From positions 80,369,093-80,433,092 of the forward strand of contig OW388289.1 in NCBI GenBank assembly GCA_936450465.1: DNA of 64,000 nt, read 5' to 3'. Below the pieces are notes generated by a model, which saw only the letters and a program-made list of their open reading frames with translations, was not told the DNA's origin and searched no databases. A program made the position numbers and the translations under genes. This DNA comes from Gibbula magus (taxonomy: Eukaryota > Mollusca > Gastropoda > Trochida > Trochidae). This document shows positions 16,668 through 60,400 of the stretch, one piece after another; the stretch's first letter is position 1, and each line of letters begins with the position of its first letter.

Positions 16668-17572
16668 AGCCATGGTCTCTGTAGCTCATCAGGATTTCAT
16701 TGATTTATTATAGGTTGAATATCTAAGTTACCCCAAGTAATATATTGTTAACAAGCAAAAAATAGGTTTTTAAATCATGACCCCTGTGACCCACATTTGG
16801 AGTAACAGGGTCACCAATCAATCCTACAATTAAGAATCACCTTTGACCAAAAAGTCTCTACACAACATTTCACCTTTCTAGAGCTTTACATACTTGAGAT
16901 AGAGATGAAAATAGGTTTTTGGGTTGTGACCCGTGACCTAGATTGGGGTCACAGGGTCACAAAATCTACAATTTTAAATCCCCATTGGCCAAGGAATCTG
17001 CACACAACTTTTCAGCTCTCTAGACCGTTTGGAACTGGAGAAGAAGATGAAAATAGGTTTTAAAGGATGTGACCCCATTTGGGGTCACGGGGTCACAAAA
17101 TCTACAATTTAGAATCTCCATTGGCCAAGGAGTCTGCACACAACTTTTCAGCTCTCTAGACCTTTTGAAACTGGAGAAGAAGATGAAAATAGGTTTTTAA
17201 GGATGTGACCCTTGTGACCCCATTTGGGGTCACGAAATCTACAATTTAGAATCCCCAGTTGCCAAGGAGTCTGCACACAACTTTTCAGCTCTCTAGACCT
17301 TTTGAAACTGGAGAAGAAGATGAAAATAGGTTTTTAAGGATGTGACCCCTGTGACCCCATTTGGGGTCATGGGGTCACAAAATCTACAATTTAGAATTCC
17401 CATTAGCCAAGGAGTCTGCGCATAAAATTTCCGCTCTGTGGAGTCATTGGTTCTGGAGAAGAAGTCGAAAAAGCGAAAAGTTTACGGATGGACAGATGGA
17501 TGGACGGACGCCGGACACCATAATGCCATGCCATAAGCCTATCGGGCCTTCAGGCCTGATGAGCTAAAATTA
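16668..17572 (+). mobile_element. TAGCTCATCAGG-family element, copy 1 (Helitron-like, nonautonomous)
   Basis: The left end reads GAGCCATGG..CTGTAGCTCATCAGG and the right end CCTGATGAGCTA, so the tips form a 12-bp inverted match. Inside are four or five tandem cores of about 136-145 bp (GGGGTCAC, CTACAATTTAGAATCCCCAT, CCAAGGAGTCTGCACACAAC, GGAGAAGAAGATGAAAATAG). Next comes a GGACAGATGGATGGACGGACG-type microsatellite, then a hairpin GGCCTTCAGGCC just before the right tip. No protein is encoded; the 68-codon open frame is repeat sequence. Confidence 0.8.
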
Positions 17573-17767: not shown

Positions 17768-18978
17768 CAAGTGTAGAAGCGAGCAAAGCTCACATACCCC
17801 CGCTTCCCGCTTAGGTTAAAGAAGTTTCAAATAAGCAAATTATAAACCTGTGGCTATTGATTAACATATCAATACAGTTTGATGAAGTGGATCACATAGC
17901 TTCAGATGTTTCTACATAACATTGGAAGATGTAAGCTATATAATTAAGGTCCAGTTGTCAAAAGGCACATCTAGGGATCATGGTTGACATGTGTTTTAAG
18001 TTTGGTGGTGCTTTCAAATGTAGTACAGGAGATATGCTTAGGACAAACTGACTTCTACATAGTCACTGTTGAAGTCATGTTTCCATAGCAACCATCCAAA
18101 AATAGCATTTGCATATTGGTCTTACCCTCAAAAGACACATCTAGGGATCATGGTTAACCTCTGTATCAAGTTAAGTGAAGCTGACATGCATAGTATGGGA
18201 GATATGGTCCGGACAACATGACTTCTCTATAGAGTCCCTGTTTACGTTTTCATGGAAACCGCAAAAAATAAAATTCAGATATAGGTCTTACCCTCAAAAG
18301 GCACAACTAGAGATCCTGTTTGACATGCGTATCAAGTTTGATGAAGCTAGCATGCATAGTTTTGGAGATCTGCTCCGCACAAAATGACTTCCTCAAAGAG
18401 TCGCTTTTTAGTCACTTTTCCATGGAAACCGCAAAAATTAAAATTCAGAAATAGTTCTAACCCTCAAAAGGCACAACTAGGGATCATGGTTGACATTTGT
18501 ATGAAGTTTGATGAAGCTAGCATGCATAGTTTTGGAGATCTGCTCTGCACAAAATGACTTCCTCAAAGAGTCACTTTTTAGTACTTTTTAGTCACGTTTC
18601 CATGGAAACCGCAAAAATTAAAATTCAGAAATAGTTCTAACCCTCAAAAGGCACAACTAGGGATCATGGTTGACATGTGAATGAAGTTTGATGAAGCTAG
18701 CATGCATAGTTTTGGAGATCTGCTCCGCACAAAATGACTTCCTCAAAGTCATTTTTTAGTCACGTTTCCATGGAAACCGAAATAAATGAAATTCAGAAAT
18801 AGTTCTAACCCTCAAAAGGCACAACTAGGGATCATGGTTGACATTTGTATGAAGTTTGGTGATGCTAGCATGTATAGTTTGGGAGATCTGCTCCGCACAA
18901 AGTTTTGGGACGGACAGACAGACGGACAGAAAGAATGAACGCTATATACCCCAGCTTACGCTGTAAGGCGGGGGTATA
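17768..18978 (-). mobile_element. TATACCCC...CTTG element (HINE/pearl-like), copy 1
   Basis: Read on the minus strand it begins TATACCCCCGC, with a hairpin whose arms are TATACCCC and GGGGTATA. A GTCCGTCTGTCTGTCCG microsatellite follows, then about five core units of about 165-180 bp marked by AAAAGGCACA(A/T)CTAGGGA. It ends GGGGGTATGTGAGC-TTT-GCTCGC plus 11 bases to CTTG. The flanking base is T on both sides. The cores are homologous to the 171-bp cores at 25598-26150. Confidence 0.8.
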
Positions 18979-24225: not shown

Positions 24226-27200
24226 GTAGGGAAAGTGTTGGGTGATGATGAACTTATGCTTATTGAATAGTTTCATTGTGTTTGTCCTTAAATCATTATC
24301 TCATTAATGGATAGTCATCTTCATGACTATAGCAAATGTAAAGTTTATATGTACGTCCACGAATTTGGTCTCCCTTGTTTTTCCAATATATAGTGTCATG
24401 GAGTCATTTGCCTGAAAGGACTGTATGTGTAAAAATAATCTCTTAGTTGATGAACTCGGCACAACACCGATTCCTTTTCAGTTTTCCCTATTCTTTCTAA
24501 ACCGTAAATTATACATTTTACTCTTAACAATATGATTGACTTGTCACCGAGTCACCATTATGTTGTTAAAGTTAAAGTACCAGATCGATCAAATTCTTTG
24601 CAAGCAGCAATGGCATCTTTGCATTTATGTGTTTTCTCTAAAATTTTCTGTTATAAGTTTTGAATTTGACACCAAAGATAGATGGTCAAAAAGGTTGTCA
24701 GGTATTATTTATCCACCATTTTGTTTGTTATTTGAGAGAATGAATATGAAGAAGAAAAGATTTTGAAGCCAAATCAAAACTGATGCACACATTATGAATG
24801 AACATCACTATGCATTCTGGCCAAGCTGTTACAGAACCCTTCTGTATTGTAACGCCATTAATTGCTAATTTATTTGAAAGAATTTGAGTATTGATACGTT
24901 TGCAATATCGTGAAATGGCATGTCTGTTGTTTGCAGGGTTCGGTCCGTTTGGTTGTCACAAAGTGAATGCAAGCTGGGTGGCGGTACAGGAACTGGACAA
25001 GCTTGGTCTCGGAGACGACATAGATCTGATAACCACCGAGCTTGCGGTCGAGTATGACACCGTCTCAAATGCAATACCTGAGCTCTGGAAGAAACATTCC
25101 CCAGTGGTGAGCACAATGGTTATGATCTTCATGATTTAAATAGGGGTGAAACGGCTCTCAGTTCACTGAGTTCAGTGCACTGTGCATCAAAGTGTATATT
25201 CAGTTTCGACTGCATACCATACTTGTTAATTATACCCCTGTTACGAAGTAAGCGGGGGTATAAAGCGGTTATTCCGTCCGTCCTTCCGTCCGTCCGTCCT
25301 TCTGTCCGGTCAATTTTCTCAAAAACCGTCAAAGGTACATCAAACAAACTTTGTACAGATGTTAACCATGTTCTTCCGAGCGCGCACAGACAATTTTTGG
25401 ACTAGTTTATTGTGTTCAATGGGGACAAGTTTTCTCGGATACTGTTCAACCTAGGTGGATGAAATTTTGGTTGTGAGTACTCATGACCATACTCTTTATC
25501 GAGTTCGAAAACCAGTTCCGAAATATTATTTTTATACCCCCGCTACGAAGTAGTCAGGGGTATATAGCGCTCAGCGCGTCCGTCCGTCTGTCCGGAACAC
25601 TTTTGGTTCCGCTCATAACTCAAATACTACTTGTTCAATTGTTATGAAACTTTATACATGTACACTTTATGGTCCCTAGATGTGCCTTTTCTATGTTTCC
25701 CTCAGATTCCATGATTATTTTTTCAGATTTTCCACTTTTAAGCGTTTTTGTGTGCGTGTCTATGGTCACACTTTTGGTTCCGCTCATAACTCAAATACTA
25801 CTTGTTCAATTGTTATGAAACTTTATACATGTACACTTTATGGTCCCTAGATGTGCCTTTTCTATGTTTCACTCAGATTCCATGATTATTTTTTCAGATT
25901 TTCCACTTTTAAGCGTCTTTGTGTGCGCGTCTATGCTTACACTTTTGGTTCCGCTCATAACTCAAATACTACTTGTTCAATTGTTATGAAACTTTATACA
26001 TGTACACTTTATGGTCCCTAGATGTGCCTTTTCTATGTTTCACTCAGATTCCATGATTATTTTTTCAGATTTTCCACTTTTAAGCGTCTTTGTGTGCGCG
26101 TCTATGGTCACACTTTTGGTTCCGCTCATAACTCAAATACTACTTGTTTCCAAGAAGGTATTAACACCTCATATACATAGCTTCTTTCTTATAAATCTGG
26201 TAAATGATTTTGACATGTTCACATTCAAGGTCAAAGGTCAAGGTCATGAGTGCTTTAATTACTACAATAATCCTTGTAAACATGATAACTTCAAACGTTT
26301 TTGTGCTGTCAGGCTCTTATTTGGTATATATCAACTATGGAGATAGACCAAGATTTGAAAAAGTTTTCGCTTAAATCTGTCAAAGGTCAAGGTCACAGCA
26401 AGGTCACAACTTAAGCATGCTATTGTGAATATGACTTATGTTAACAATGAACACTTTGAGTCATTGCATGATTGTTATACACAATGAAAAGTAATCAGTG
26501 ATGGTGTGACCTTGAAGGTCTAAGGTCATGGTCAAGGTCATGAGATATTGGTTCAGGCCATGTTAATCCTTTGATCCAATTTTGAAATCAGAAATAGGTT
26601 TTAAGAACAAACTTGTGAAAAGTGAACCCAGTGATGATTCAGTGATGAACTAACTTGAATAATGAAAAAATTTTGGTCCAAAAAAAATCCCATTTTATTT
26701 ATGCTGAGGAGAAGGCGGAACAGGGAAAGGCGAGACCCAAAGTTTCGGAGCTGCTCTGCTTTTGCGGTGTCCCGCAATCGCTCTTCTAGTTGTTCAAATG
26801 TTACGAAACCACTTTGACTTTAACTTCTAAAACATGCTTAGAGGTGTAATACTTACTCTGCTTTAATAATATATGTTATGGTCTTTTCATACAAAAGTTT
26901 AAACATTGATACCCTTTTGCTATTTTCAAACATTTCTCTTTGTCCAATGTTAATGTAAAAGCGGGGGTATCATGAGTGAGCTTTGCTCACTAATTCTCTT
27001 GTTTACGGAGTTATGGCCCTTGAAACCGAAATTGAACTTGTACCAGAAGAACTGTGATGCTCCAATGGGGACAAGTTTTCTCAGAAACTATTACATCTAG
27101 GTGAATGAAATTTAATATGGAGGTAGTCCAGATGATACTCTTCATCGAGTTCGAAAACCAGTTCCGAAATATTATTTTTCACGGAGTTATGGCCCTTGAA

Positions 27201-30200
27201 TTCGAAATTGAACTTAGTACCAAAAGAACTGTGAAGCTCCAATGGGGACAAGTTTTCTTGGAAACTGTTACATCTAGGTGAATGAAATTTAATATGGAGG
27301 TAGTCCAGATGATGCTCTTCATCGAGTTCAAAAACCAGTTCCGAAATGTTATTTTTTACGGAGTAAAGGCCCTTGAATCCGAAATTGAAGTTGGTACCAA
27401 AAGAACTGTGATGCTCCAATGGGGACAAGTTTTCTCGGAAACTATTACATCTAGGTGAATGAAATTTAATATGGAGGTAGTCCAGATGATACTCTTCATC
27501 GAGTTCACAGTCCAGTTCAGAAATATTATTACGGAGTTATGAAGCCCTTGAATCTGTAATTGAACTTGGTACAAATTACCGGTGTGATGCCCTAATGGGA
27601 AAAATTAAGTTACCGTACCTGAAAAATATTACATCTGGGTGAATGAAATTTGTAATAACAGTCAGTTGCTAAAATTATTTTGGACAATATTATGATGCTT
27701 GAAGCTGTTTTTTAAACATAGTAACCTTCACATCTATAATTTTCAATGGACGGATAGCGGATGGCGGGGGTATGTGAGCCATGCTCACTTTTTTCTTGTT
27801 TCATGACTTGTTATTAATATTTTCTTTTTTACATTCATTAGACTTTCTTTTCAAGAAAAAATGTGTTTTGTTGTGACTTTAGTTAAAAAAAATTTTATCT
27901 GAACCGAATCGAAAATGTAGTGATCTGAGGTTTTTGTACAGCAATAATTACTGAACCGTTCATTGATTGGTTGATGTCTGATCTCTCTCTACTGTGATAT
28001 TTTTTTGACGAAACTTTTGTGGACTAAATGTTTGGGTATGTAGAGTCACTAACAATAAGTCTTTCCCCAAACCATAAGATACAGATTGCAGAAAAGTTAA
28101 TGTGTGTTACAGAATTCGGTGAGCAGTTGGAGAGTGTTTGGTGGCTCATGCTATTTTGTGTGATGTTTTGGGTATGCATGTTGTCATATGATAATAGCAA
28201 CATGAACAGACATAAGTACATTACAGTCCTTGATACAAATATCGAGGAACCTTCGTTGACTCTAAGTTAAACTGGAAGTCTAACACTGAAGCTTTGTACA
28301 ACAAATGCCAGCAGCGTCTCCATCTCATGCGCAAACTCAGATCGTTCAATGTTAACCCGTCTGTCATGTCTTCTTTTTATGTAGCATTTATCCAAAGCAT
28401 TTTAACATTTTCATTTCATTGTTGGTACGGGTCTCTCTCAGTTCATCTGAAATCTAAAGTGAACAAAATTGTAAACATTGCAAGTAAAATCGCTGGGGTC
28501 AAATTTGAATGTTTAACAGAAATATATGAGCGGCAAATCTTAAATCAAGCTGTTAAAATCATATCTGACCCAACACATTATTTACATTCGGAATATCACA
28601 TCCTCCCTTCAGGCCACTGCTACAAAGTTCCAGTTTTGAAAACTAAGGGAGCCCGTACATCATTTGTACCAAACACAATATCTCTTTTAAATACACGTGT
28701 AAATACTTAAAGTTATATGTCAATAGAATGATATGATGTATTTGTATCCCTGTTTGTTTTTGTTTTTTTTAGCTCTGTTGATGTAAAGCAAATTCCTGAG
28801 AAGGCAATAAAGTATTATTATTATTATTATTATTGATCACTAACTTCTAAAACATTCAGTACCTTTTTATGCACATGGATATATGCATAAAAGGATTAGA
28901 TAGTCATGAAGGGGAGGGTTCTTTCGGGGTATTTTTTGTGGAAACGAAATTCCAGGGCATATCCCTGTTAACACATATATGTTATTAATACATGATTAAA
29001 ACACAGTCAAATTGAAAGATACTGATGGAGGTAATAGTTCGATGACTTTATATTTCATTTAATACTTGATAAACACAAGCGTACATTTGTTGAAAAATGA
29101 CATAAACAACAATGAGAACTGAAGCCATTCATCGACGCTGCGAGGTCGAAAACTTCGCTACAGCATATAACAGCAAAATGTTTATAAGTTTTATGACATG
29201 TTATGTGTTACTATGTGAATACTCTATCAGTGTATGTCTTTAGTTTTTTAATTGCAAAATAAGGTACAATATAGCGTGTTTTCATTTCACGTAATGCAAA
29301 GAGATCTAAGATGGTGACAGAACCCTCCCTTTATGCCACTGACTATACGTATATATGCAATAAGGTGGACGTTTATTAATATTGTTATATTTGGCATCAC
29401 GCCATCTCAGGGATTAAAACTAGCTTCAAACATATGGTAGCCTGAAGGCCTAGTCCTTTTGATTTTTACTAGCCCAATACAAGTATCACTAGCCCGTATC
29501 TCCCAGTAATCTAACAATTATAACTTATGTTTGAACTACAATGGCAAGTATTTTCCCTACTTCAATCATTCACATCTGATACCATTGTTGCTGATAAAAA
29601 CAAGAATGTCTACTCATACTTTGACTATTCATAATGATCAGAATTTTTCAATGGCCCACAGGGCTAGTAGAAGCTAACATTTACTAGCCCGGTGTCATTT
29701 TTTACTAGCCCTGCGCTATCTGCATTACGGCAGTACAAATTCAAAGCCACATCTTCAGAGTCATTTGTCAGCCCTGACTGTACAAACTTATCCATTAGGC
29801 CACAGAGACCCTGACAAAAACAAGGTCCATCAACTGGTAGTTGCACCATTATTACATTCAATACCCATGTAATAGATGTACAGGAATTTAGTAGTCAGGA
29901 TTCAAGTTTTAGAAACCAAAATACACCAAGTCCTGTTGCAACCCTAAATAGCAAACCTGACCCACTTTCCAGTTGGTGGTCCACGTTGGGGTGTCTGGTA
30001 TTGCTACAGAGCTTACCTTGGAGCAACAAGCGCACAACGACGGATACGACAAACATGACATCAACGGCACATGTCCCTCAACACGATGCTGTGTAGACGG
30101 TGCGGACAACAGCATCACGTCCCAGATAGACATGCAGTATGTGTGCCAGGAGGTCAACAACGCAGGCATCAGTGTCAAGGCTGTTGTCTCTCATGATGCT

Positions 30201-45492: not shown

Positions 45493-48400
45493 CTGAAATG
45501 TTAGAGAAGACATTTTTATGAGACAAATACTAAATCGTTGAAATACATTTTACACTTGTCAACGCAACTCTTGCAATACATTACTTCTGAACTAATATTG
45601 ATCAATTAAAGCGAACGGGTCATGAGAGCCAAAAACCCGAAAAATAGAGCCATGTGCTCTGTAGCACATCAGGCTTAATATACATTCACTAATTCAAAAT
45701 GTCAACTTTAAAGAGCACATAAAATCTTAAGATGAAATAGCTTTTCAGATCATGATGTCTGTGACCTATATTTGGGGTCGCAGGATCACAAAATCTACAA
45801 TTTACAATCCTCATTGGCCAAAGAGTCTGCACACGACTTTTCAGCTCTCTAGACCTTTTGGAACTGGAGAAGAAGATGAAAATAGGTTTTGGGGATTGTG
45901 ACCCCTGTGACCCCATTTGAGGTCACAAGGTCATGAAATCTACAATTTAGTATCCCCATTAGCCAAGGAGTCTGCAAACAACTTTTCAGCTCTCCAGACC
46001 ATTTGGAACTGAAGAAGATGAAAATAGGTTTTTGGGGTCGTGACCCCTGTGACCCCATTTGAGGTCACGGGGTCATGAAATCTACAATTTAGAATCCCCA
46101 TTAGCCAAGGAGTCTGCACACACAATGTCAGCTCTCTAGACCTTTTGGAACTCGAGAAGAAGATGAAAATAGGTTTTTGGGGTTGTGACCCCTGTGACCC
46201 CATTTGAGGTCCCGGGATCCCGAAATCTACCATTTAGAATCCCCATTAGCCAAGGAGTCTGCACAAAAAATTTCAGCTCCCTAGACCAGGTTGTTCTTGA
46301 GAAGAAGATGAAAATGCGAAAAGTTTACAGACGGACGGACGGACGGATGCCGGACACCATGCAATGCCATAAGCCCATCTGGCCTTAAAGGCTAGATGAG
46401 CTAAAAATCAAAAGGAATCAAATGAATATAAATAATATTTTCCTTTTAAAGTCTACGATAACAAGACTTTTTAGAGCCTTTTTATCTTTTTGGTTTACTT
46501 GTTTTTGAAGAAAATTGCCACAAATAATATGTTTCCGTGCTTCTGGGTGACATTGTGACACTGTAACTTAGCATGACATGTTCACTGACATGCTTTTGAT
46601 AAAGTTCAACTTTCATCATCCCAGACTAGAGACTCACCCTGAGATTAACAGCTACAACTAAGATAGAGGAGACGACACAGCCGAAGGACTGGTGGTCGCT
46701 CTCAGACATGCCATCTGGCCCGATGGCGACGTTGAAGGCCCCGTACGGTATGAAGAAGAGAATAAGTGAGGTGACGATGCCCTCCAGACCGCTGTACATG
46801 AACATCTTCTTGTTGAACAGCGAGTCTTTCAAGCCTGGCGTGTACAGCTTGGGGTAGCGGAGGGAGTAGTCATCGTTCACGTCCTGGCAACAGGAGAATA
46901 GTTGGTAACCCCTTACAGTAATATACTCTGTATACCTACATAAGCTGACTGCCAATCCTATTTACTCCATTATGCTTTGTCTCTAGCTATAGATTGAGCA
47001 GGTAAAGGGTTAACTTTGTGGACAACATCTTGGTTCTGTTTAATACTATATGTAATGCTTGGAAATAAGAGGACAATTCTTTATGGATTTTCAAATTCTG
47101 AACATTTTAGTATAGTTTTTCATACCATTTTCCAGGAATGTACTCCATCTTCATGGAGACATGTCACTGCCCTTTTTATTTAAATATATTGCTATTTGTG
47201 GTTGCGCAGCATATTGGTTTATAAAATTCTGAAGGATTGAGAAAAAGTACTGCAAATTAAACATAAGGTGCTGTTTCAGTCAAGATTGATATCCTCCCTA
47301 TTTACTCTTTGACAACGAAAAGAGATTTGTCATTTTGAAATCAAGTAAAAATGTTTGGTGAGTTTACCTGGTCAAATATGCCCAGAACGAGGACAGGTAG
47401 TGAGGTGTAGAATACATTGTATAGTGTGATGAAGTACGGGTCGTACAGGGTCTGAAACATACACAACACTCTTGCAGACAATTTGTACCTTATTATTGAC
47501 AACACAACTGTAAAATCTTGCAAACTTATGATGAATACTCTTGATGCAGAAACAACCATGAGTAGTACAACATTTGAAAATACAGTAGAATTTATGATTT
47601 TGATGAAGTGGTACCCCAAAAAAATTAATTTCAACTTTTACACTTTAATGTCCTCATTACAACCCTGACCTTGCGGGTAATGAGTGGACACTCAACCAAC
47701 TGAACTACATGCATGGTTTAAATAAAATCTGTAAATTCAACAAAATTTAATATCCAAACTAAGACTCATTCCACTGACCTGTGCTGAGAAACCACAGAAG
47801 AAGGCATACCAGAAGTGGCACAGTGTGAATGCAAAGTTTTTGTAGAAGAAGTATCGGAGGAACTTGCACATGCGGAGGTAGGACCAGCGTCCGTGGACCA
47901 GAAGCAGTCTCTCCAGGTAGCGGAACTGAGCCATGGAGAAGTCACTTGCTAGTACCGCCTGCATTCCCTCCTGCCCACTGATACCGACACCGATGTGGGC
48001 CGCTGGTAGGAAGAGAAGATCACGTTAGTAGTTGAATCATAACACAGAATTGTACAATTGATGGACGATATGTTTGCATAGCCTCCTTGATAGGATGTGA
48101 GGTTATATTGGGTTTTATGCTTATTTCAAGTATATATTTTCACTATTATCACTAAAACAGAAGATGTCCATTGTGGTTATAAAACTCAATCAACAGGATA
48201 ACGTTGCCAAGCCCTCATGGGTTTACAGTGAGTATGTAAGTGATTTACTGCTTAATGCCTCTTGGGCAATATTGCAATCTTTAGTGGTCAGATTGAGGAT
48301 CCACTCCTGTTAAACATATTGACTAAACTAATTACCCAACAAATTCATTCTTATTTTCTGAACCCATAACTTGAAAGAATACCAAAACAGTTTTAAATGC

Positions 48401-57400: not shown

Positions 57401-60400
57401 TTTTCAAAGGTTTTTAAGGCTGTGGCCCATATTGGGAGTCACAGGGTCACCAAATTTACAAGTTAGAATCCCCATTAGCTAAAGATTTTGCATACAATAT
57501 TACAGCCTTTTAGGTCTTTTTCATCTGGAGAAAAAGATGAAACAGGATTTTAGGTTATGACCCCTGTGGCCCTTATTTGGGGTCACCGGGTCACCAAATC
57601 TACATTTAGAATCTCCATTGGCTAAAGACTCTTTACACAACAGGACAGACTTCTAGGTCTTTTCATTCTGGAGAAGAAGATGAAAATAATCTTATCTTAT
57701 CATTTCATCACCAGTCATATGCAGTTCACATATTTCATGTAAAATAAAAGAATTCTTAACTCCTCTTCAATTTAGTCCTTTATGCCTTGTCACAATTTTC
57801 AGTTCATAGGCTATTCAATAGTTCTCATTTCACATTGATTAAATCAATTTGACAAACATGTCCACAATGTAGATTGTTATCTCAAGTCGACATATATTTC
57901 AAATCATTGTGATTGAAGTGTCATAAATTATCAGTTCAAAATTCATTTTCAAAGGGTTTTTTAGGCTGTGGCCCATATTTGGGGTCACAGGGTCACCAAA
58001 TTTACAAGTTTGAATCCCCATTGGCTAAAGAGTTTGCATACAATATTACAGCCTTCTAGATCTTTTTGTTCCGGAGAAAAAGATGAAAACAGGATTTTAG
58101 GTAATGGCCTGTGAGGCCCTTATTTGGGGCCACAGCTTCACCAAATCTACAATTTAGAATCTTTATTGGCTAAAGACTCATTACACAACATGACAACCTT
58201 CTAGGTCTTTTCGTTCTGGAGAAGAAGATGAAAATAATCTTATCTTATCATTTCATCACCAGTCATATGCAGTTCACATATCTCATGTAAAATAAAAGAA
58301 TTCTTAACTCCTCTTCAATTTAGTCCTTTATGACTTGTCACAATTTTCAGTTCATAGGCTATTCAATAGTTCTCATTTCACATTGATTACATCAATTTGA
58401 CAAACATATCCACAATGTAGATTGTTATCTCAAGTCGACATACATTTCAAATAAAGTGAATGAAGTGTCATAAAATATCAGTTCAAAATTCATTTTCAAA
58501 GGGTTTTTTTTAGGCTGTGGCCCATATTTGGGGTCACAGGGTCACCAAATTTACAAGTTTGAATCCCCATTGGCTAAAGAGTTTGCATACAATATTACAG
58601 CCTTCTAGATCTTTTTGTTCCGGAGAAAAAGATGAAAACAGGATTTTAGGTAATGGCCTGTGAGGCCCTTATTTGGGGCCACAGCTTCACCAAATCTACA
58701 ATTTAGAATCTCCATTGGCTAAAGACTCATTACACAACATGACAACCTTCTAGGTCTTTTCGTTCTGGAGAAGAAGATGAAAATAATCTTATCTTATCAT
58801 TTCATCACCAGTCATATGCAGTTCACATATCTCATGTAAAATAAAAGAATTCGAAACTCCTCTTCAATTTAGTCCTTTATGACTTGTCACAATTTTCAGT
58901 TCATAGGCTATTCAATAGTTCTCATTTCACATTGATTACATCAATTTGACAAACATGTCCACAATGTAGATTGTTATCTCAAGTCGACATACATTTCAAA
59001 TAAAGTGAATGAAGTGCACATAAAATATCAGTTCAAAATTCATTTTCAAAGGTTTTTTAGGCTGTGGCCCATATTTGGGGTCACAGGGTCACCAAATTTA
59101 CAAGTTAGAATCCCCATTGGCTAAAGAGTTTGCATACAATATAACAGCCTTCTAGATCTTTTTGTTCCGGAGAAAAAGATGAAAACAGGATTTTAGGTAA
59201 TGGCCTGTGAGGCCCTTATTTGGGGTCACAGGGTCACCAAATCTACAATTTAGAATCCCAATTGGCCAAGGAGTCTGTACATATAATTTCAGCTCTCTGG
59301 AGTCATTGGTTCTGGAGAAGAAGATGAAAATAGCTTTTAAGGTTATGACCCCTGGGGCCCTTATTTGGGGTCACAGGGTCACCAAATCTACAATTTAGAA
59401 TCCCCATTGGCCAAGGAGTCTGTACATAAAATTTCAGCTCTCTAGAGTCATTGGTTCTGGAGAAGAAGTCGAAAAAGTGAAAAGTTTACGGACGGACGGA
59501 TGGACGGACGCCATCCCATGCCATAAGCCCATCAGGCCTTTCAGGCCTGATGAGCTAAAAAGCGACAAGGTTTATGGAACTGAAACTGGAACTACTTCAT
59601 TTTTGCAAAACATACATGACGTTTCTTATACAATACATGTATGTACTTGCTCCTTCACCAAGTGGATTGTAGAGAAAGCAAAATTGGGTAATATATATAT
59701 ATATATATATATTCAAATGGTAGTTGAAAGAATAACTAACGCCGATTTCCTCCTACATGTTTCAACTTTATCCTGAAGGAGGTTTACATTACGGTGTATA
59801 TATATATATCTATACATTAATGCACATCTAAGATGTTAATAACTGAGTTTCCCAACAAGCAAATATTCTGATGTTCACAAGTTATTATCAAGAAACACTA
59901 TGTGTTTATTATATCTCCTCTCCGCTATTTATATTACTTAGTTATTACTTGGCTCATATAAAACAATTAATGGTATATTATATATAGTAACATGGCAACA
60001 AATTTCCATAATCAACACCTATAAGCAGGTTTCTGTGTCACTGAAAACATAATAGTCAATAACTTCATCAACCTATGTAATTTTTGCACATAGCCTAGTT
60101 GCTGTCACCCTTTAGTTCAGAGTGTTAGCTTCTTTCAATATTTTGGTCACCATGGTTCATAATGTCTAGAAGGTAAAAGATTGGAAGCATGTTCACAGTA
60201 ATAGGACAGAAATTTGATTTTCATCATCATACTCGCATAAACATTATTCCTGGAGACTCAACAATGGAGGCAAGATTCACTTTAAGAGAAAAGGTTAAAG
60301 TAATGTATGGCTCAATCATGGTTTGCTAAAGCTCAACCTATTAGCTATCCCAAAGCTAAGAGAGGTGTGACTTAGGAGACCTAAGGTCACTTACCATCAA

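What the first reader, a model, noticed from the sequence alone, without database searches (positions are those of the whole stretch)
25231..27798. Nested insertion shows the exact ends and the T|T target of a Helitron-like family
The outer element's 177-bp core periodicity (25421, then 27067, 27244, 27421) is interrupted by 1469 bp at 25533-27001. Removing that length restores exactly 177. The insert begins TATACCCC and ends CTTG inside a T run, without a convincing target duplication. All three copies in this window have T on both sides, a 5' hairpin at the TATACCCC tip, and a 3' hairpin (GTGAGC-NNN-GCTCAC) ten or eleven bases before CTTG. Seen directly: ends, hairpins, period. Inference: rolling-circle (Helitron2/Helentron-type) movement of a nonautonomous 'pearl'-like family.
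Basis: partly seen in the sequence, partly recalled or inferred. Interest (0 to 1): 0.75.

Follow-up and report, generated by a model that had tools for sequence, protein, structure and literature searches.

The report
Nested nonautonomous Helentron transposons, bivalve-like genome
A short jumping gene without its own enzyme sits inside a relative of itself; copies across the genome show its exact ends, a recurring five-letter landing site, and decayed enzyme-coding relatives that end in the same way, which suggests which element moved it.

Summary
A 1469-bp element (25533-27001) lies inside the 177-bp core array of a related element (25231-27798); a third relative is at 17768-18978 (minus strand). 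All three show the anatomy published for nonautonomous Helentrons (HINEs), the kind described in oysters. The 30 best-scoring inner-family copies, at 25 distinct sites, all start TATACCCC and end CTTG. Against paralogous empty sites there is no target duplication beyond T: one T is gained at two sites, none at a third, and a fourth lies in an unstable T run.

Two results go further. First, 32 of 32 distinct 5' flanks have T at -4 and 31 of 32 have T at -1, so the target looks like T-W-D-T^T, not merely T|T. Second, three decayed loci coding for Rep/Pif1 helicase/endonuclease parts end in the same 3' tip. One 967-bp copy joins the inner family's 5' tip and core to 346 bp of such a locus's 3' end at 98% identity. 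Oyster work could not link its HINEs to an autonomous element (PMC7492417).

Not shown: a 5' tip beside a coding locus, an intact partner, or transposition itself.

The parts
25533..27001 (+). Inner nonautonomous Helentron (HINE), 1469 bp
   Evidence: 30 of 30 fetched copies start and end at the same bases
25529..25532 (+). 5' target tetranucleotide TTTT, host side of the inner insertion (host = outer element)
25533..25564 (+). Inner 5' tip and hairpin (TATACCCC...GGGGTATA)
   Evidence: z -3.43
25577..25595 (+). GTCC/GTCT microsatellite of the inner element
   Evidence: D6
25597..26148 (+). Inner core tandem repeats, 171 bp x 3.2
26961..26970 (+). 3' subterminal repeat GCGGGGGTAT, inverse of positions 2-11 of the 5' tip
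26976..26990 (+). Inner 3' hairpin GTGAGC-TTT-GCTCAC
   Evidence: z -3.86
25231..25532 (+). Outer HINE, left part (5' tip, hairpin, start of core)
25231..25262 (+). Outer 5' hairpin
   Evidence: z -2.94
25273..25308 (+). TCCG microsatellite of the outer element
27002..27798 (+). Outer HINE, right part (177-bp core repeats, 3' tip)
27774..27788 (+). Outer 3' hairpin GTGAGC-CAT-GCTCAC
   Evidence: z -4.20
17768..18978 (-). Third HINE of the same kind, 1211 bp, 170-bp core repeats (array 17958-18901)
18945..18978 (-). Third element's 5' hairpin
   Evidence: z -3.01
17779..17793 (-). Third element's 3' hairpin, one mismatch
   Evidence: z -2.67

Best explanation
The inner, outer and third elements are nonautonomous Helentrons (HINEs): noncoding DNA between a 5' hairpin tip and a 3' hairpin tip, filled with a short tandem array. 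A Rep/Pif1-helicase/endonuclease protein made by an autonomous Helentron with the same tips is taken to nick at the tips, peel off one strand from the 5' end, stop past the 3' hairpin at CTTG, and join the copy into a target reading T-W-D-T^T. This leaves no duplication beyond zero or one T (one site in a T run is unclear). The inner copy landed this way in a T run inside the core array of the outer copy. Shown: ends, hairpins, target letters, empty sites, and the 3' tip shared with three helicase/endonuclease loci. Inferred: the enzyme's action, strand order and rolling-circle replication.
For: Ends fixed in 30 of 30 fetched copies at 25 distinct sites. Copies 97.8-99.7% identical pairwise, median 98.8%. 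2330 exact 3' tips and 966 exact inner-type 5' tips genome-wide, reversed controls 0. Empty sites: 36 of 37 host-repeat matches read ACTAG-TTT-CAAATG where the six filled copies read ACTAG-T|..|TTT-CAAATG. In the outer core, of the first 100 listed of 1105 matches 96 have 6 letters and 4 have 5 by my count, against 7 T in the window. Target: -4 T 32/32, -3 A or T 32/32, -1 T 31/32, +1 T 35/35; T at -4 of a TT in the window is 33-34%, of a TTT 33-36%. The tetramer does not follow element relatedness (permutation p 0.64 and 0.60), so it looks host-given. Coding loci: L073 carries PIF1 (1.6e-22) and Exo_endo_phos (1.1e-6) on the element strand and ends in the inner 3' tip, 42 bp at 97.6%. The two other loci with a coding match over 900 bp end in it too, followed by T. 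A 967-bp copy has the inner 5' tip and core and then matches the 3' end of the C1 coding locus over 348 bp (346 of the element, two flanking T) at 98.3%. The Helentron Rep motif RGSPH is in 29 of 30 fetched Rep loci.
Against: No 5' tip was seen beside a Rep/helicase locus: 0 of 14 listed Rep matches on C1 and on C2 up to 49.3 Mb lie within 15 kb of a listed strict 5' tip (compared by eye). The three coding loci with the tip are broken by stops. In the C1 locus the listed Rep matches lie 9.0 and 13.9 kb from the tip, with repeated blocks between. Seven shorter coding matches (about 220-320 bp, 73-75%) came without a tip piece. A different Rep class examined over 16.6 kb has no such tips. Two relatives of the tip-bearing clade (C3:51.31 Mb, C9:32.40 Mb) have no exact tip of that type within 15 kb; tips with one mismatch were counted but not listed. 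Site (c) gains no T and site (d) about two, and at both a middle base of the target tetramer differs between filled copy and paralog. The target letters come from best-scoring copies that passed a tip filter. Transposition itself was not observed.
Confidence: 0.9

Rival explanations
1. The three tip-bearing helicase/endonuclease loci are not the helper. HINEs of this family are moved in trans by another, intact Helentron of the genome that tolerates these tips.
For: The fetched HINE copies look young (median pairwise identity 98.8%), while the three coding loci with the tip carry stops. Dozens of Rep loci with open frames of about 2300-2900 aa exist.
Against: The one long-open-frame class examined has no such tips within 16.6 kb. 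The composite copy L074 matches the 3' end of the C1 coding locus over 348 bp at 98.3%, so that lineage was active recently.
Confidence: 0.35
2. A MITE or other cut-and-paste DNA transposon with subterminal repeats, as pearl was first classed (PMC7492417, passage).
For: Short, noncoding, with inverted repeats at both ends.
Against: The repeats are asymmetric (terminal at 5', about 30 bp from the end at 3'), there is a further hairpin at the 3' end, no duplication beyond T at four sites, and the 3' tip occurs on helicase/endonuclease loci.
Confidence: 0.03
3. The apparent insertion is a duplication or recombination artefact of satellite-like arrays rather than transposition.
For: The host is a tandem array, and arrays do recombine.
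Against: The same unit with the same ends occurs at 25 distinct flanks in 30 fetched copies, and the sibling units give the uninterrupted sequence.
Confidence: 0.01

Closest known systems
Cg_HINE elements of Crassostrea gigas (PMC7492417; passages and section 7 read)
   Same: Left part with subTIR, complementary inverted repeat and GTCY/GTCC/GTCK microsatellite; central satellite-like repeats; right part with subTIR and palindrome; T-rich target, TT suggested, no TSD
   Different: Sequence identity to Cg_HINE not tested (supplements not open to me). Here coding loci with the same 3' tip are found, where that paper could relate none of 10 autonomous elements to its HINEs, and the target looks narrower than TT
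DINE-1 and HINE-Mo (PMC4067079; passages and section 6 read)
   Same: subTIR, 3' stem loop, T-rich target, variable number of flanking Ts at paralogous empty sites, Rep/helicase/endonuclease partner; 5' inverted repeat in DINE-1
   Different: HINE-Mo subTIRs lie about 2-4 nt inside the 5' end; here -4 to -2 belong to the host at the one clean site. In what I read they report T-rich preference, not a fixed T at -4
Pearl (CvA, CvE, CvG), DTC84, MgE of bivalves (as described in PMC7492417 and PMC11136912; original papers not read)
   Same: Bivalve elements with central tandem repeats (pearl: up to six of about 160 bp), classed as HINE-like
   Different: Sequence relatedness not tested
Autonomous Helentrons (PMC4067079, passages)
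   Same: Rep motif RGSPH in 29 of 30 fetched Rep loci, and PIF1 helicase plus C-terminal endonuclease/exonuclease/phosphatase domain in L073
   Different: The tip-bearing copies here are decayed and their 5' ends were not reached

Membership tests
HINE (nonautonomous Helentron) | Subterminal inverted repeats, the 3' one followed by a palindrome | tested here: met
   Inner and third: ATACCCCCGC versus GCGGGGGTAT, 10 bp; outer only 7 bp (ATACCCC versus GGGGTAT) before a mismatch
HINE (nonautonomous Helentron) | Inverted repeat next to the 5' subTIR | tested here: met
   5' hairpins of all three elements, z -2.94 to -3.43
HINE (nonautonomous Helentron) | 3' palindrome or stem loop | tested here: met
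   z -2.67 to -4.20; 2330 exact pattern matches genome-wide
HINE (nonautonomous Helentron) | Insertion in T-rich DNA between T and T, no TSD | tested here: met
   zero to about two extra Ts, no longer duplication
HINE (nonautonomous Helentron) | Microsatellite and central tandem repeats | tested here: met
HINE (nonautonomous Helentron) | Shares both ends with an autonomous Helentron | tested here: inconclusive
   3' end met at three coding loci; 5' end not reached, linked only through composite copy L074
Autonomous Helentron (loci C1, C11, C16) | Helentron-type Rep motif, PIF1 helicase, endonuclease | tested here: inconclusive
   Helicase and endonuclease met for C1 and by similarity for C11 and C16. 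Rep matches adjoin C11 and C16, but their motif letters were not fetched
Pearl (bivalve HINE family) | Sequence similarity to pearl ends or core | not tested
   No pearl sequence was at hand
Canonical Helitron | 5' TC, 3' CTRR, insertion between A and T | tested here: not met
   5' TATA, 3' CTTG, T on both sides in 29 of 30 fetched copies, one with 5' G; the canonical definition is recalled

The most novel reading that the evidence does not exclude
Helentrons of this kind do not merely prefer T|T: they read a fixed-spacing host motif T-W-D-T^T on the 5' side, the way single-strand transposons of bacteria (IS608, IS91; recalled) read a short flanking target. The helper of these bivalve-type HINEs is the small Rep/helicase/endonuclease clade represented by C1:60.16, C11:12.90 and C16:45.60 Mb.
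Probability: 0.5. Interest if true: 0.6.

Novelty: new member of a known kind. Interest (0 to 1): 0.45.

Why it matters
HINEs with satellite-like cores spread tandem repeats through bivalve genomes; Helitrons are given as 8.7-12.6% of four oyster genomes (PMC11136912, passage). Which element supplies the enzyme was left unresolved for C. gigas (PMC7492417). Here the 3' tip and a recent composite point to a specific clade of coding elements, which is directly testable. A fixed T at -4 would mean that target choice is sequence-read rather than a loose taste for T runs, which matters for how Helentron Rep or its endonuclease joins DNA.

Tried and rejected
Class-C Rep element (L072+L024+L071, 16.6 kb of adjoining genome): one stray TATACCCC near its far end without hairpin, no tips that fit, so not the helper. 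Strict 5' tip near Rep loci: none of 14 by eye. Exact ATGA-type 3' tip near C3:51.31 and C9:32.40 Mb: none (one-mismatch tips not listed). Element length as a multiple of 171: only 9 of 27 paired copies fall within 0.15 of an integer, so length does not vary by whole cores alone; 8 of 35 5' tips found no inner-type 3' partner within 6 kb. Tips in viral contigs: 0. Host exon guess at 24939-25106: no Pfam and no PDB match. Collecting copies of the outer family failed because the server did not answer. Papers: looked for target letters of Helentrons; I saw only their listings and opened nothing new from them.

Considered and rejected: reading -4 to -1 as part of the element. At the clean site the empty sequence already holds TAG, and the tetramer does not follow element relatedness. 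Sites (c) and (d), where a middle base differs from the paralogs, leave some room for it.
Full report
What is there. The window is C1:80369093-80433092 of a 1.47-Gb genome, bivalve-like by its content (the nearest named relatives of the enzyme piece, at 50% identity, are from Mytilus coruscus; the species is not known to me). The finding's coordinates are exact. The inner element is 25533-27001; the outer element is 25231-27798 with the inner one inside its 177-bp core array; a third relative lies at 17768-18978, minus strand. The three cores differ (171, 177, 170 bp) while the tips are alike.

Ends. Search with the inner element scored 40 of 2818 candidates and cut the 30 best, the window copy included. 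All 30 start TATACCCC and end TTCTCTTG; 29 have T before (L054 has G) and 30 have T after. They lie at 25 distinct flanks because six copies share one host repeat. Pairwise identity is 97.8-99.7%, median 98.8%. These are the best-scoring copies, not a random sample, so they lean to young ones. The strict 3' tip pattern has 2330 exact matches in the genome, reversed control 0; the strict inner 5' tip has 966, control 0. On C1 below 64.9 Mb, 27 of 35 listed 5' tips have an inner-type 3' tip within 6 kb, at 568 to 3691 bp.

Empty sites. (a) Outer core: of the first 100 listed of 1105 matches, by my count, 96 have six letters between ATTA and ACGG and 4 have five; the window's filled unit has seven T. 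(b) A dispersed host repeat: 36 of 37 matches read TTT and one GTT between ACTAG and CAAATG; the six filled copies read T|..|TTT. Both gain one T. (c) A 145-bp array that holds copy L053: in the 100 listed of 296 matches, 98 have the length of the rejoined flanks and two are one shorter, by eye (the letters of the last 24 were withheld); the rejoined flanks differ from paralogs by one base in the tetramer. (d) L056 against one diverged paralog: about two more T in a T run, one base differing. No longer duplication occurs at any of the four. This agrees with PMC4067079, which reports no target modification but a variable number of Ts.

Target. Taking all held sequences that pass a tip filter, 32 distinct 5' flanks have T at -4 in 32, A or T at -3 in 32, no C at -2, and T at -1 in 31; at -5 and -6 T is 11 and 9 of 32. 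Tetramers: TAAT 10, TTTT 10, TTAT 5, TTGT 2, TAGT 2, TATT 2, TTTG 1. Two of the 32 (L057 and the L060 group) are the same host position, so 31 are independent at most. Copies whose 5' tip failed the filter, such as L004, were not counted. Among TT dinucleotides of the window, T at -4 is 33-34%. The outer and third window elements and the composite L074 are among the 32. The tetramer does not follow element relatedness among 25 copies (p 0.64 and 0.60), and at site (b) the empty sequence already holds TAG, so I read it as host target, T-W-D-T^T. PMC7492417 and PMC4067079, in the parts I read, give T-rich or TT. L057 and the L060 group carry 98.5-98.8% identical inserts in host flanks only 71-72% identical over 140-168 bp, which looks like two separate insertions at one position.

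The enzyme. The Rep family PF14214 has 151 matches in the genome, and 29 of 30 fetched ones carry the Helentron motif RGSPH; the other reads RGWPH with a stop beside it. On C1 up to 64.9 Mb, one listed 3' tip lies 9.0 kb and 13.9 kb downstream of two of seven Rep matches, on the same strand. The 4 kb before it (L073) encode, in pieces broken by stops, PIF1 helicase (1.6e-22), Pif1 2B (1.8e-5) and Exo_endo_phos (1.1e-6), and end in the inner tip, 42 bp at 97.6%. That locus was chosen for its tip. Two others were found by coding similarity, C11:12.90 and C16:45.60 Mb (DNA 77-81%), the only other matches over 900 bp; both have the tip about 300 bp beyond the match, followed by T. Seven shorter coding matches came without a tip piece. 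Rep matches adjoin C11 and C16. By arithmetic from 2330 tips, a same-strand tip within 700 bp has a chance near 6e-4 per locus. Protein search shows three more relatives at 54-57% (C3:51.31, C9:32.40, C11:13.74 Mb), one of them, C3, with an open frame of 1549 aa; the rest are partial at 63% or less, or 42% or less. C3 and C9 have no exact tip of this type nearby (one-mismatch tips not listed); C11:13.74 lies beyond the list.

The link. C1:24952888-24953854 (in L074) has the inner 5' tip, microsatellite and 171-bp cores, then matches the 3' end of the C1 coding locus over 348 bp, two of them flanking T, at 98.3%. Further places share 107-330 bp of that end region, not all reaching the last base. 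So the inner family's 5' end and this lineage's 3' end travel together.

Mechanism. Rolling-circle movement by Rep, with helicase peeling and the 3' hairpin as stop signal, follows from the known biology of Helitrons (recalled) and from the single-strand reasoning in PMC4067079. None of it was observed here. I put 0.9 on HINE, about 0.6 on the C1/C11/C16 clade as helper, and 0.6 on the five-letter target.

Papers. PMC7492417: passages and section 7. PMC4067079: passages and section 6. PMC11136912 and PMC10294476: passages. Others: search listings only. That I know of no bivalve HINE tied to an autonomous element rests on PMC7492417 and on the listings, which cover open papers only.

Noticed in passing
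L057 and L060, L061, L063, L064, L068, L070: Nearly identical inserts at the same position of host repeats that are only 71-72% alike: two separate insertions at one spot, or gene conversion.
   Followed up: partly
L062, 5' flank: The flank resembles a decayed 3' end of a related element (GCTTGGCTCACCAATT), suggesting head-to-tail neighbours; one search also shows close repeated copies at C7:51.415-51.418 Mb.
   Followed up: no
window 16785-17437, 45770-46315, 57420-59475: Dispersed arrays of a related 136-145-bp unit; copy L053 of the inner family is inserted in such an array elsewhere.
   Followed up: partly
window 24939-25106: Looks like an exon of pyroglutamyl-peptidase I followed by a splice donor (recalled resemblance); Pfam and PDB searches found nothing. 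If right, the outer element may lie in an intron.
   Followed up: partly
window 54356: A lone TATACCCC start (TATACCCCGCTACC...) without the hairpin and without a 3' tip that the scans picked up.
   Followed up: no
C3:4485861, C17:65525384, C17:4568842, C18:42147840, C6:45520519: Five dispersed places hold a similar 250-residue helicase/endonuclease piece (55-56% to L073): perhaps a captured or truncated, multiplied fragment.
   Followed up: no
C1:60164056, 60167528, 60172445: A 94-bp block recurs at these places beside duplicated Rep matches 4.9 kb apart, and at many other genome sites.
   Followed up: no
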